Source: Haliclona indistincta (taxonomy: Eukaryota; Porifera; Demospongiae; Haplosclerida; Chalinidae). From it: 64,000 nucleotides of DNA. The notes beneath the pieces are model-generated. The model did not search any database and was not told where the DNA came from. It was given only the letters and a program-made list of their open reading frames with translations. Where the stretch lies: NCBI GenBank assembly GCA_964017065.1, contig OZ024785.1, positions 12,231,086 through 12,295,085 of the forward strand, written 5' to 3'. Made by a program: the position numbers and the translations under genes. This document shows positions 48,851-54,085 of this stretch, in pieces (position 1 is the first letter of the stretch; every line of letters starts with the position of its first letter).

Positions 48851-50321
48851 ATGGATGATGCCGGTGGTTCAGCACTTGTACCATATCCGTGTGAAGTCCC
48901 TACTTGTGATATAGCTAAATACATCACTGTCATTGCTGTACTTGGAGCATTAGTGCTGGTGTTGGCTGGCTACTCTATCTTCATCACCTACTCCTATGGA
49001 AGAATAAAGAATGTAGTGAAACAGCTAAGACAACAATACATAGGTAAGACAAATTACTACGCCTGCTAAAAGAACGTGATTCAACAATCAAATTTTTTGA
49101 TTACATATACAATAGCTATTAATTTTTTATGACTATCAATAATTTTGCACTTGACAGATAGAGAACAATAACTGCTATATAAATATTATGACAAGAATAA
49201 GTGTATAGGTTATATCCCGCGTTAGCAGGATATATGACCCGTTATAACCCGCGGGAAAGGGTGCGCTTCTGAGACTTTACGAGAGCTCTAGTTTAGCCCT
49301 TTCCTGAGGGTTATAACAGGTCATACGTCTCGTCAACATGTGATATAACTTACTTGTACCATGCTAAAGACTGTTCTGATCTTGGACATGTGACGCGGAG
49401 GGAAATATGACCCGTTATATCCCTCAAATAGCGGTCAGAATAGACTTAGTATGGTATATAATTAAATTAATGTCCTCAGACAATAATTTATTACATTGGA
49501 CATGCACTAATGTACTATAATTGATTAAGGCATTTGGTGAACTCCTTTTCTCATATATAGGTGCTCCACCTCAGTTGACAAAAGAACATCAGAAATTTAC
49601 CAGCGATAGTGATGAACAACGTGTCAACAGAAGCTATGAAAACTGTCATGTAGTTGTAAATCCTGGCATAGACATACCACTAACAGAGAGCACTAGGTGT
49701 GATGATCGCGATATTAGTGGTAGCTATTCATACCCTAATGTGGATGGATGGAACAGTATTAAGAAAGCAGAAACTAGTTTTACAGAAAATTTGGAGCCAC
49801 AAGTGTATAATGAAGCTAAACAAGAGGAGTGTGACCAGAATCGTCCAACACAATCTATACCAAGTGACTCTGAAACAAGGGTAACATCAGAAATAACTGA
49901 TTCACTCAAACATTCAAATATGCCCGATTTATTGAATCAAACCCAAACAATTGAAAAAGACTATGTGAGTAACCCTACACTAACTGCAACTACTGATCAA
50001 GAGCCTCTGGAAACAACAGAAATGTGTCGAGTTGCCTCTCTACCATGTCACTCGAGAGAAAGTCATCAATGTGATGCTGAGAAACGTATAACAATGTCGC
50101 TAGCGTTAACTAGTTCTGGCAAGGATCGCAGCACCAGCAGAGATGATAACACACCGACTAATATCAAGCTATCTAAGAATCCCTCCTATGAACTGCTAAG
50201 ATTTAGTTCATCACCTCCTACAGGAGCCGATGAAGCTCGTTTCTGTCATGTTGCAAATGATGAGGATGGTCTGATGGTACTAACACTTAATCCTTCATAT
50301 GAAACATTCAATAAAGACTAA
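48851..50321 (+). CDS. Small-array gene 1: single-pass protein with NPSYE tail motifs (317 aa)
   Basis: Two exons (48851-49043 and 49561-50321) joined in phase 1. There is no signal peptide: about 20 outer residues (MDDAGGSALVPYPCEVPTC), one helix (ITVIAVLGALVLVLAGYSIF), a short basic stretch, and a 255-aa acidic/Ser-rich tail. The tail has LSKNPSYELL and LTLNPSYETF, matching LSPNPSYET and LSQNPSYES in the EGF receptor upstream, plus NRSYEN. NPxY motifs recruit PTB-domain proteins or clathrin adaptors, and phosphorylated YE sites recruit SH2 domains, in known systems. Gene structure and helix resemble the four smaller genes that follow. It is likely a transmembrane adaptor or receptor subunit; no homolog is recognised. 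Confidence 0.75.
49205..49435. mobile_element. MITE-like repeat in the intron of array gene 1
   Basis: GGTTATATCCCGCGTTAGCA at the left and ACCCGTTATATCCCTCAAAT at the right, with internal mirrored blocks (AACCCGCGGGAAAGGG and CCCTTTCCTGAGGGTT), suggest a non-autonomous element. Borders are approximate. Confidence 0.5.
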
Positions 50322-50955
50322 TGTATAACTACATACTATTATGCCTAGTACAAGCTATAACAGTCACACGAACCTGTTGTTCGAGTCTTTTTAGGTCTTC
50401 TCCTTGCCAAGCAGCCATGTTGCATTGAGTAACCCCGAAAGAATGATTTCGAATGCTCTTAGAATAATTATTGTGTAACACATTACAGCTTCATAAAAAA
50501 ATCAACTTCATAAATTCATAAAAAATTAGTACCTAGCTCAAGTACTAAATGTAACATACCTTTCCTGTAACATGCACATACACAGACACATGTACAATAA
50601 TAATTATCAAGCGATTGTATTCATTTCAAAATGCCCATAGAAAATTGTGATAGTTTTCAGTCTGTGTACCTTTCAATCAATGCAAATTTGTCTAGATTTT
50701 CTATGCAAAATGGCCATTTTTGTCCTTGTTTGCAGTTCAACGATGCATTTTATGACTACATGAAAATTTTGATTTCATCTTCCAGTTTTGTATTCTAAAT
50801 TTCAATTTATAATAATTTATTGAAAGGTACACTGACCACGTGTTCGACAGTACAACACACAAATCTTGAAAGAGATGCAGTTTACCAAAGATTTACTCAT
50901 GCTGAATCTCAAAAGGTCAACAATAATCAATGCCGTTTGAACACTATAGCATACG
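50322..50955. other. Intergenic, AT-rich
   Basis: I see no gene. TATA-type promoter sequence for the next gene begins at 50956. Confidence 0.4.
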
Positions 50956-50963
50956 TATATAAG
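50956..50963 (+). promoter_or_regulatory. TATA box of array gene 2
   Basis: TATATAAG stands 43 bases before the ATG at 50999. A TTTACAGT initiator-like word lies near 50,981-50,988. Confidence 0.6.
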
Positions 50964-50998
50964 CACACTTTATACTCAAGCTTTACAGTGGGTTTAAG

Positions 50999-51446
50999 AT
51001 GTCTGATTGTGCCAGTAATCCTATCATCATTACTTTTCCTATCATTGCTGTTGTTATAGCAACCTTGGTTGTACTATCAGTGTTCCTAGCAGGCTATGGG
51101 GTCGTGATCACCTTCTGCTATCATAGGAACAAAAAGTGTCTGTTGAAGCTGAAAAGAACATTAAATGGTAAGAATACGAGAGTTTTACAAATAATGTATT
51201 TATGCGTATGTTATAGTAAGCACTGAGTGTAGACAAAGCAAAAGATACACGATGGAGCTAAGCAATGCTGACTATTCCTCATGGAGTGAACAGCGGAGAA
51301 TGAAATCCCATCATAAGCCTCAGATGCAAGATGAACCATACTACATCACTCCTAATATTATTGGCAAGACTGAGTACCAGGCTTTATCAATGACTACCAT
51401 AAATGCTGACGGTCATGAATATGCCACACCCTACATACGTCACTAG
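50999..51446 (+). CDS. Small-array gene 2: single-pass protein with EYQALS motif (132 aa)
   Basis: Exons 50999-51167 and 51217-51446, phase 1. A short outer end (MSDCASNP) precedes one helix (IIAVVIATLVVLSVFLAGYG), then VITFCYHRNKK and a coiled, basic stretch. The tail has YYITPNIIGKTEYQALSMTT and ends HEYATPYIRH. TEYQAL fits a TxYxxL tyrosine motif close to ITIM/ITSM. At the place where genes 3 and 5 have ITPYATVG or ITPYAIVG, this one reads ITPNIIGK, so that tyrosine is lost. A role in tyrosine signalling is inferred from motifs only. Confidence 0.72.
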
Positions 51447-52135: not shown

Positions 52136-52548
52136 CTCATGCAGGGGTACTAAGGGTAACAGTTATTGTCCTTATAAATAGTGAGTTATTGTTATCATTT
52201 TAAGTATGTAGCAAACTAGCTTTTGAGTGAAATTGTCTTATTGCTAACTGTTGACACTCCGTGTATGCAGTGTCGCAAGATGCTCTTCAAAGTGCACTGT
52301 ACATACATAGTCATGTATATCTACTGATAGTCAAAGCTTATTTAGTGAAGGACTAATTGATCATTCATGTACACAATCAAATGTTTATTCAAATATAACA
52401 CATTGTTGATAATCACAAAGTTCGTGAAGAAGTAAACATGTTTTATTGTGATTGTACTGTAATTATTATAATAATTTGCTGTATACAATGGTTATACAGA
52501 CTCTTTATAGTTCATCACAGCTTTGCATGTCACTTTCTTGCTTTAATA

Positions 52549-53186
52549 ATGCCTGACTCTTTCAGTACACCAGTTGTCTTATCTGTGATAATAGGACTAG
52601 TGATACTAGTTGGTATTCTAGCTATCTATGGAATCACGATCACTATCTTTTATCAACGAAATAAACATTGCTTCCAGCAGTTGAAAGAAGATATAAATAG
52701 TAAGTGTGATATTATTTTTGTCTGCTGTGTGTGCTAGATAACACTAGTTGTGCTTTTAAAATAATTATTAGTAAAACCAGCATCATGCAGTTTTTATTGG
52801 TAGTAGCACTCCCAGACATGCACTTCGATACTTTGTTGACGAGAATAGTAATTTTTGATAGAAAGGTCAACTTCACAGAGAAGAGGTGGTTGATGCATGC
52901 TGACTACATTTTAATTCTGTTGTTTCAATTTCAGAAGCTGCCGAGATAGTGAGGTGCATGGATATCACATCATTGTTGTTATTGTACATACTTGTCAGAC
53001 AATGGTGTTTACTTTTATGCAGTTATCAAGGGAAGTGTAGGCAAGCAAACTACTGCAACTGTGAAACATGATACTCAGAACAGCTCACAGCGACAGACAG
53101 TTACTGCTCATAGAGATCGTGATGAAGAAAGCACCATCAGTCCATACGCCACAGTTGGTATACATGATGTCATGCACTACAGATGA
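52549..53186 (+). CDS. Small-array gene 4: single-pass protein with one tyrosine motif (104 aa)
   Basis: Exons 52549-52699 and 53023-53186, phase 1. The outer end is MPDSFSTPV, with one helix (LSVIIGLVILVGILAIYGI), then TITIFYQRNKH. The tail has ISPYATVGIHDV and stops soon after at HYR. Sequence past the stop (GAAGAACCCATCTCATGC) may be a decayed form of the second motif seen in genes 3 and 5, so the tail may have been cut short by a frameshift. The first exon resembles gene 3 most. Confidence 0.68.
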
Positions 53187-53471
53187 AGAACCCATCTCAT
53201 GCAGCTGGCTAGGTCGTAACAATGGTCCCCAACTAAGGTCCCCAACAAAGGATATGGACAAGTTATTATTTCAGCTCTCAGTGTATGTAGACTCCGTCAT
53301 TGTGCAATACAAACACGAACACACAGTGTTATTTTTCCTACTACAATGAGGCTTGATGTAGTATATACTACTACAACATATCTACATGATAGTGTGTATA
53401 TGGTTATGCAGTTGGTTTCAGTATTAAAAAAAAGAGTATAGATGCTCGGACGTCTCATAGACTAGAGTTGA

Positions 53472-54085
53472 ATGGCAACCAATAATGACTGTTCCCGCAG
53501 TAATTCTATCTTCATTGGTGTGATAGTATGGCTAATACTGACTGTGCTAATTCTAACAATTTACGGTAGTGTGATCTCTTACTTCTATCGGAAAATAAGA
53601 AATAACTTTCTTCAGTTGAAACAAGACTTGAATAGTAAGTTTACTCTGTGAGACAGAATAACAGCAATGCATGTAGATGTATGCTAGCATGTTTAATATT
53701 TGGTCTCAGGCATCGATTTAGACTCAAGACTGATGAATATGATAATTATGTCAAGTGTACTGATGCATGAGCTAGAATAATTATGTATTGACCAATTCCT
53801 ACAACTACATATAATTATGGGTATGCCAATGCAGTGATCAAGAAAAATATATCGAAGAAACGTACATCAGCAGCTGGACAGCTCATCAAGAATCAGGATG
53901 ACCCAGAAGCTCTAGACGAAGCTGAATTCATAACTCCATATGCAATAGTTGGTATCGAGGATGTGCATACTGTTGGTATCGAGGATGTGCATACCACAAC
54001 TGCTGACAGCAGTGAATACCAAGCTCTGTCATCTGATGCTTTGAATCCAGACAGTGACTATGAAATTGAACACGATTATTACTAA
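53472..54085 (+). CDS. Small-array gene 5: single-pass protein with paired tyrosine motifs (137 aa)
   Basis: Exons 53472-53634 and 53835-54085, phase 1; the junction creates the Met in LNMIKKN. The outer end is MATNNDCSRSNS, then a helix (IFIGVIVWLILTVLILTIYG) and VISYFYRKIRNN. The tail has ITPYAIVGIEDVHT, with VGIEDVHT duplicated in tandem (24 bp), then SSEYQALSSDA and a C-terminus DYEIEHDYY. SEYQAL fits the ITIM pattern SxYxxL and TPYAIV the ITSM pattern. It is the last gene of the array. The kinase gene on the other strand ends 196 bases further on, so the two genes converge. Confidence 0.75.

What the first reader, a model, noticed from the sequence alone, without database searches (positions are those of the whole stretch)
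48851..54085. Array of five single-pass proteins with recurring tyrosine motifs: a possible undescribed signalling family
Seen: five consecutive plus-strand genes with the same plan. Exon 1 codes a short outer end, one helix and YG[IV].IT.[FY]-like juxtamembrane sequence and always ends in phase 1; exon 2 codes the tail. Tails of genes 2-5 share [IT][ST]P[YN]A[TI]VG and/or EYQALS. Known: TxYxx[VI] is the ITSM pattern and SxYxxL the ITIM pattern of vertebrate immune receptors; small proteins with almost no ectodomain and several such sites resemble transmembrane adaptors (LAT/SIT/TRIM type). Inference: a lineage-specific adaptor or inhibitory-receptor cluster in a sponge-like animal. I recognise no named family.
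Basis: partly seen in the sequence, partly recalled or inferred. Interest (0 to 1): 0.85.

Follow-up and report, generated by a model that had tools for sequence, protein, structure and literature searches.

The report
Small membrane signalling adaptors in tandem
Five neighbouring genes of an animal, perhaps a sponge, encode tiny membrane proteins that look built to pair up in the membrane and to dock signalling enzymes on their inner tails, much as small adaptors of our own immune cells do, but with no shown kinship to them.

Summary
Five two-exon plus-strand genes lie at 48851-54085, all GT-AG, all phase 1. Exon 1 is one family: 0 of 1000 shuffles reach any of five leave-one-out scores. Tails of genes 2-5 are related; gene 1's tail is not and weakly resembles that of the receptor gene upstream. 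Searches of the 144-Mb genome found no convincing further member. Five tails from other contigs keep YQALS; in all 8 tails with YQALS a tyrosine follows at +14/15.

Corrections: YG..IT lies inside the membrane helix, so it is no phosphosite. It is part of Y....[TS]..Y, present in 5 of 5; YxxxxT is a published CD3-zeta/CD28 helix-dimerisation motif (PMC9068223, passages). FcR-gamma is the best PDB match of the helix profile, not significant (E 0.058). ITSM fits 2 of 5 genes, ITIM 2 of 5, each near chance alone.

Best reading: dimerising transmembrane adaptors that recruit SH2 proteins, perhaps SHP-type phosphatases (two such genes found). Gene structure is well supported; the mechanism is inferred; no expression data. 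Member of no named family.

The parts
48851..49043 (+). g1 exon 1: 24 residues outside, membrane helix, basic flank; ends in phase 1
49561..50321 (+). g1 exon 2: 253-residue tail with 7 Tyr, unrelated to the other four tails
   Evidence: own match only (below E 5)
50178..50192 (+). g1 tail NPSYE, first copy
50289..50303 (+). g1 tail NPSYE, second copy
50999..51167 (+). g2 exon 1: 8 residues outside, membrane helix, basic flank; phase 1
51217..51446 (+). g2 exon 2: tail with 7 Tyr
   Evidence: relatives P0007 and P0008
51375..51389 (+). g2 tail YQALS
51667..51796 (+). g3 exon 1: 7 residues outside, membrane helix, basic flank; phase 1
51846..52135 (+). g3 exon 2: tail with 5 Tyr
   Evidence: relatives P0004, P0005, P0006
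51974..51991 (+). g3 tail TPYATV (ITSM pattern)
52031..52045 (+). g3 tail YQALS
52549..52699 (+). g4 exon 1: 8 residues outside, membrane helix, basic flank; phase 1
53023..53186 (+). g4 exon 2: short tail with 2 Tyr, no YQALS
53139..53156 (+). g4 tail SPYATV (ITIM pattern)
53472..53634 (+). g5 exon 1: 11 residues outside, membrane helix, basic flank; phase 1
53835..54085 (+). g5 exon 2: tail with 5 Tyr
53933..53950 (+). g5 tail TPYAIV (ITSM pattern)
54017..54031 (+). g5 tail YQALS (ITIM pattern with the S two before the Tyr)
48971..48997 (+). g1 intramembrane Y....T..Y
51095..51121 (+). g2 intramembrane Y....T..Y
51745..51771 (+). g3 intramembrane Y....T..Y
52627..52653 (+). g4 intramembrane Y....T..Y
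   Evidence: best match of the TCR zeta helix model in the genome
53562..53588 (+). g5 intramembrane Y....S..Y

Best explanation
A lineage-specific tandem family of small transmembrane adaptors. Each protein has 7-24 residues outside and one uncharged helix. The helix pairs with itself or with a sister through the polar YxxxxT/S motif, as described for CD3-zeta and CD28, so that a pair shows two copies of each tail tyrosine side by side. Src-type kinases phosphorylate these sites (YQALS, [TS]PYA[TI]V, NPSYE) and SH2 proteins dock: tandem-SH2 proteins such as the SHP-type phosphatases fit the g3, g4 and g5 tails best, PTB or Grb2-like readers the g1 tail. Shown here: gene models, homology, a single locus as far as searched, a conserved tyrosine module, the intramembrane motif, and SH2, SH2-kinase and SHP-type frames in the same genome. 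Inferred: expression, topology, pairing, phosphorylation, docking and the sign of the signal.
For: Y....[TS]..Y in the helix of 5 of 5 and no charged residue in 5 of 5 cores; YxxxxT as dimer motif (PMC9068223, passages). Net charge outside -3 to 0, first 20 residues inside +2 to +5, which fits N-out/C-in. YQALS in 8 of the 9 related tails (g4 lacks it), with a Tyr at +14/15 in 8 of 8 and at +18 to +20 in 7 of 8; the five outside tails were found with profiles that hold this module, so the count is biased towards it. TPYA[TIM]V in g3, g5, P0004 and P0005. The genome has 90 SH2 matches; of 18 frames scanned, two are SH2-SH2-phosphatase and six SH2-kinase. One SHP2 can bridge two ITSMs on two PD-1 chains (PMC7078208, passages), which is what a dimer with one such site per chain would offer.
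Against: No transcript or protein evidence. Motif matches taken singly are near chance (P 0.05-0.23). g2 has no ITSM or ITIM, g4 has lost YQALS, and P0006 has an extra residue that breaks its ITSM. Of the conserved Tyr of g2, two are gone in P0008. Residues outside the family could explain the Tyr conservation as general constraint (P only 0.022, non-independent).
Confidence: 0.45

Rival explanations
1. Trafficking tails. The sites are sorting signals of the AP-2 kind (YxxPhi in g2-g5, NPxY in g1) that carry partner membrane proteins into endosomes, without phosphotyrosine signalling.
For: YxxPhi occurs in the tails of all five and NPxY twice in g1. That these are sorting signals is recalled knowledge.
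Against: Conservation runs past what YxxPhi needs: S at +4, mostly T or L at +7, D/N and P near +9/+10, Tyr at +14/15. The module's neighbours would be free under sorting alone.
Confidence: 0.2
2. An activating, zeta/FcR-gamma-like signalling subunit family: g2-type tails act as ITAMs for a Syk-type kinase, g3-g5-type tails as inhibitory partners, so the array would hold paired members of opposite sign.
For: P0007, a relative of g2, has a canonical ITAM by spacing, YITL-x6-YQAL; g3 has YHTV and g2 YITP 11 residues before the YQALS tyrosine. The helix resembles FcR-gamma and the TCR zeta model. Syk-family sequences from sponges are in print (PMC9601881, passages).
Against: None of the five window genes has a canonical ITAM; one in nine tails has it, and 1.2% of its shuffles do. 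P0008, the other g2 relative, lacks it. No acidic helix residue to pair with receptors. Syk was not sought in this genome. The P0006 ITAM match lies in its first 40 residues, which I take for intron read through, and I cut them off.
Confidence: 0.12
3. The five units are alternative helix-and-tail ends of larger receptors, joined by splicing to ectodomain exons, rather than five free genes.
For: In g2-g5 the Ser codon before the helix is AGT, in frame, behind a stretch that could serve as an acceptor; the other exon end is phase 1 throughout.
Against: In-frame stops lie 12, 39, 6, 153 and 3 bases before the ATGs of g1-g5. The gaps between the genes are 220-677 bases and I saw no ectodomain-like frame in them in the list (by eye). 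The receptor upstream has its own helix and tail. The shared AGT can be plain descent.
Confidence: 0.08
4. Small membrane proteins whose tail tyrosines have no phosphotyrosine role; the recurrences are descent from one recent ancestor.
For: The genes are paralogues in one array, and single motif matches are near chance.
Against: The tails have diverged to 30-56% identity, yet the YQALS module and its Tyr spacing remain in tails from other contigs.
Confidence: 0.15

Closest known systems
LST1/A (vertebrate myeloid adaptor, 97 aa)
   Same: Very short ectodomain, one helix, tail with tyrosine sites, dimer; binds SHP1 and SHP2 (PMC8111073, passages).
   Different: LST1 has a dimerising cysteine, a palmitoylation site and two ITIMs; here ectodomain Cys is in g1, g2 and g5 only, no tail has CxxC, and no tail has two ITIMs. 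No sequence kinship was found or directly compared.
Transmembrane adaptor proteins (LAT, SIT, TRIM, LAX, PAG, NTAL, LIME)
   Same: Short ectodomain, one helix, tail with several Tyr sites (PMC2803307, passages).
   Different: No Pfam match to any such family; tandem array; conserved YQALS-x9/10-Y module; intramembrane YxxxxT.
TCR zeta / FcR-gamma helix (PF11628)
   Same: YG...T..Y in the helix of g2, g3, g4 as in FcR-gamma (letters); g4 is the genome's best match to the model.
   Different: No acidic residue in the helix, no conserved Cys outside, no ITAM in the five; PDB E-values not significant.
ITIM/ITSM receptors (PD-1, BTLA)
   Same: TxYxx[VI] in g3 and g5, [SIVL]xYxx[ILV] in g4 and g5 (consensus from PMC8631942, passages).
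   Different: No ligand-binding ectodomain; g1 and g2 have neither motif.

Membership tests
Transmembrane adaptor proteins (as a kind) | Short extracellular part | tested here: met
   7-24 residues before the core in 5 of 5, if the ATGs are the starts
Transmembrane adaptor proteins (as a kind) | Single transmembrane helix | tested here: met
   One uncharged core of 24-33 residues in 5 of 5, by hydropathy only
[quoted passage not shown]
   7, 7, 5, 2 and 5 Tyr in tails of g1-g5; phosphorylation not testable; g4 hardly fits
LAT/PAG/NTAL/LIME subgroup | CxxC palmitoylation motif next to the helix | tested here: not met
   No CxxC in any of the five tails; in the printed exon-1 sequences the flank has lone Cys in g2 and g4 only
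TCR zeta / FcR-gamma family (PF11628) | Match to the family's helix model over the curated cut-off of 25 bits | tested here: inconclusive
   Whole proteins: g4 24.1, g3 16.4, g2 14.5 bits, g1 and g5 none. Genome frames: g4 25.3, just over
TCR zeta / FcR-gamma family (PF11628) | Acidic residue in the helix (recalled as the receptor-pairing residue) | tested here: not met
   No D or E in 5 of 5 cores
TCR zeta / FcR-gamma family (PF11628) | ITAM, YxxL/I-x6-12-YxxL/I, in the tail | tested here: not met
   0 of 5 window genes; relative P0007 has one
ITSM/ITIM proteins | TxYxx[VI] or [SIVL]xYxx[ILV] in the tail | tested here: inconclusive
   g3, g4, g5 yes; g1, g2 no; each near chance by shuffling
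ITSM/ITIM proteins | Binds SHP1/SHP2 or SH2D1A-type proteins when phosphorylated | not testable with these tools
   Two SHP-type frames exist in the genome

The most novel reading that the evidence does not exclude
The array is an early branch, or a parallel invention, of the zeta/FcR-gamma signalling module: a YGxxxTxxY dimer helix without the receptor-pairing acid, joined to tails of which some are ITAM-like and some ITSM-like. The immune-type dimeric phosphotyrosine module, with members of opposite sign side by side, would then exist in an animal without lymphocytes.
Probability: 0.1. Interest if true: 0.9.

Novelty: new variant of a known kind. Interest (0 to 1): 0.55.

Why it matters
Small dimeric adaptors with paired phosphotyrosine sites are known chiefly from vertebrate blood cells (recalled). 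A compact five-gene family with the same plan in what may be an early-branching animal would make it testable whether the logic of ITIM/ITAM adaptors is older than lymphocytes, and it offers a natural set of paralogues for seeing how such tails diverge.

Tried and rejected
Shared tail elsewhere in the genome: the DNA pattern for TPYA[TIM]VG gave 2 matches, both in the array. The pattern for EYQALS gave 11 (control 1); two are in the array (g2, g5), and the nine others lie in frames that by eye are short or unrelated. g3's QYQALS is outside that pattern.

Larger receptors with the same helix and tail: g2 as query gave 66 matches: 4 in the array, 61 on C3 between 12.37 and 13.37 Mb (best E 0.0143) and 1 on C1. 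The seven that I read (L082-L088) are multi-pass and look like POT peptide transporters by eye (no family scan), so I take them for helix-to-helix noise; the other 55 outside the array were not read. g4 as query brought four places outside the array (best E 0.37), of which L075-L077 show a Thr-rich ectodomain and a helix but no related tail. Matches L005, L006, L032, L034 were read and set aside; L028 (E 5.8) and L033 (E 3.1) were not read.

Signal peptide instead of a membrane helix: judged unlikely from the uncharged core of 24-33 residues and its basic flank; no predictor was at hand.

Relatives of g1's tail in the large protein set: itself only. All three protein searches are spent, so the helix exons were never searched there on their own; the A1 profile did hold them, but its length window (0.55-1.75 times 139) leaves out lone helix exons.

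Helix against the PDB by single sequence: g4 finds V-ATPase c first and FcR-gamma last of 30, at E 9; g3 finds nothing. The four-gene profile A1 finds beta-dystroglycan first (E 0.06), FcR-gamma chains at 0.28-1.1. These count against the zeta reading.

Papers: ten searches. I saw no report of such a family in a sponge in the rows listed; those are capped listings over open-licence papers. Passages only were read of PMC8111073, PMC2803307, PMC7582382, PMC9068223, PMC7078208, PMC8631942 and PMC9601881.

Structure prediction was not run: a lone helix with a probably disordered tail would say little, and the spliced proteins are not letter for letter in the window.

A BEL/Pao-type element in the window speaks for an animal (recalled).
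Full report
What is there. One search gives the DNA and the five gene models, all on the plus strand, with GT-AG introns of 517, 49, 49, 323 and 200 bases and phase 1 in 5 of 5. The proteins have 317, 132, 139, 104 and 137 residues. In-frame stops lie 12, 39, 6, 153 and 3 bases upstream of the ATGs of g1-g5, so the short N-termini are likely, though not proved, to be real.

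Is it more than chance. With a profile of the other four, exon 1 of each gene scores 37.4-62.8 bits, above 1000 of 1000 shuffles that keep the hydrophobic core as core. For tails, g2, g3, g4 and g5 beat every scored shuffle (989, 946, 1000 and 995), but g1 does not (685 of 866 reach it). So the helix exon is one family of five; the tail is a family of four. Single ITSM or ITIM matches are near chance for these compositions (P 0.05-0.23).

One locus, as far as searched. Whole-genome searches with g1, g2, g3, g4 and g5 found no convincing member elsewhere; the best outside matches were helix-to-helix (E 0.0143). Such searches score only the best candidates. Exon-1 and tail profiles over all frames of the window and 10 kb on either side found the five helix exons and the four tails, the next best at E 0.49 and 0.6.

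Relatives. The protein set gave five tails that are not marked as the window's: P0004 and P0006, both listed with a longest contig of 455,885 bases, P0005 and P0008, both with 710,889, and P0007 on a 918-base contig. Equal lengths suggest, but do not prove, shared contigs and so arrays in another genome. P0007 and P0008 are like g2 (MELSNA.Y, YQALS, YATPYIR); P0004-P0006 are like g3. In four pairwise alignments (g2 with P0007 and P0008, g3 with P0004 and P0005; P0006 left out) Tyr was kept at 6 of 6, 4 of 6, 3 of 5 and 3 of 5 positions, together 16 of 22, other residues at 143 of 296; P 0.022, but the four share sequences. Counted from the YQALS tyrosine, another stands at +14 or +15 in 8 of 8 tails (g2, g3, g5, P0004-P0008) and at +18 to +20 in 7 of 8, all but g3.

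The helix. All five have Y....[TS]..Y, and none has a charged residue in the core. [quoted passage not shown] Pfam's TCR zeta helix model is the nearest match on the whole proteins: g4 24.1 bits against a cut-off of 25, g3 16.4, g2 14.5, g1 and g5 none. Over the whole genome that model has six matches; g4 is first (25.3 bits, E 0.0028, over the cut-off), g3 second (17.5), g2 fifth (15.7), and the best outside match has 16.4 bits. A profile of the five helix exons finds FcR-gamma first in the PDB at E 0.058, with 5 of 11 matches FcR-gamma chains. The four-gene profile finds beta-dystroglycan first (0.06) and FcR-gamma chains at 0.28-1.1. Single sequences do worse. So the resemblance is there in plan, is not significant as kinship, and the zeta family's acidic helix residue and ITAM are absent in the five.

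The tails. ITSM pattern: g3 TPYATV, g5 TPYAIV, also P0004 and P0005 (TPYAMV) but not P0006. ITIM pattern: g4 SPYATV and g5 SEYQAL. Canonical ITAM: none of the five; P0007 has YITL-x6-YQAL, and g2 and g3 have a tyrosine 11 before YQALS with P or V at its +3. Nine tails were tested for this and 1.2% of P0007's shuffles have it, so it is a lead only; P0008 lacks it. g1 has NPSYE twice (0 of 20,000 shuffles have two).

Surroundings. Just upstream, frames at 43766-44320 and 45374-46687 and pieces between look by eye like a receptor with a signal peptide, Cys-rich and EGF-like parts, a helix and a tail of about 394 residues with 19 Tyr; the family scan finds nothing at E 0.1 in the two frames given. 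Its tail also has NPSYE twice, and BLASTP aligns it with g1's tail at E 0.008, 20 of 50 identical, an E-value for that one comparison. It has one further match in the genome, at E 0.67. g1 may have taken over a tail from this receptor or may serve it: a guess.

The machinery. The genome has 90 SH2 matches. Of the 30 loci cut I scanned 18 frames: two neighbouring frames on C9 are SH2-SH2-phosphatase, the SHP plan, and six are SH2 plus tyrosine kinase. Syk was not sought here; Syk-family sequences from sponges, Amphimedon among them, are in print (PMC9601881, passages).

How it most likely works. The proteins pair through the helix, are phosphorylated by Src-type kinases, and hold SH2 proteins at the membrane. 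A pair with one ITSM-like site per chain could engage both SH2 domains of an SHP-type phosphatase, as reported for two PD-1 chains (PMC7078208, passages). Everything after the gene models and the conservation is inference. Closest in plan is LST1 (PMC8111073, passages), then the transmembrane adaptors in general (PMC2803307, passages).

Limits. There is no expression evidence. Only open-licence papers were searched.

Noticed in passing
43766-46687 (+): Receptor-like gene just upstream of the array: signal peptide, Cys-rich/EGF-like parts, helix and a long tail with 19 Tyr, NPSYE twice and SPSYENL; its tail weakly matches g1's.
   Followed up: partly
10516-14247, 24127-27861, 35448-39191 (+): Three very similar long frames (1244, 1245, 1248 codons); the first matches the Pfam beta-helix model.
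   Followed up: no
14392-14775 and 39319-39702; 18694-19200 and 42685-43347 (+): Further near-copies of membrane and secreted frames, so much of 10-43 kb looks like a repeated block of cell-surface genes. Fibronectin III match at 19435-19770.
   Followed up: no
720-6311 (-): Long frame with Pao-type peptidase, integrase zinc-binding and weak reverse transcriptase matches: a BEL/Pao-type retroelement.
   Followed up: no
47139-48689 (+): 516-codon Cys-rich frame that looks secreted, without a Pfam match at E 1.
   Followed up: no
58431-58502 (-), 59291-59362 (-), 60383-60454 (+): Three tRNA genes with the same covariance score.
   Followed up: no
G000 C3 12.37-13.37 Mb (L082-L088): 61 matches in a 1-Mb stretch; the seven read look like a large tandem array of POT-type peptide transporters.
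   Followed up: partly
G000 C9 7.650-7.654 Mb (L038, L042): Two neighbouring SH2-SH2-phosphatase frames of 581 and 572 codons, each open throughout; SHP-type genes next to each other.
   Followed up: partly
P0007: A g2-like tail on a 918-base contig with a canonical ITAM by spacing, YITL-x6-YQAL.
   Followed up: partly
g2-g5, start of exon 1: The Ser before the helix is AGT in all four, behind a stretch that could be a splice acceptor; may be descent or a latent exon start.
   Followed up: partly
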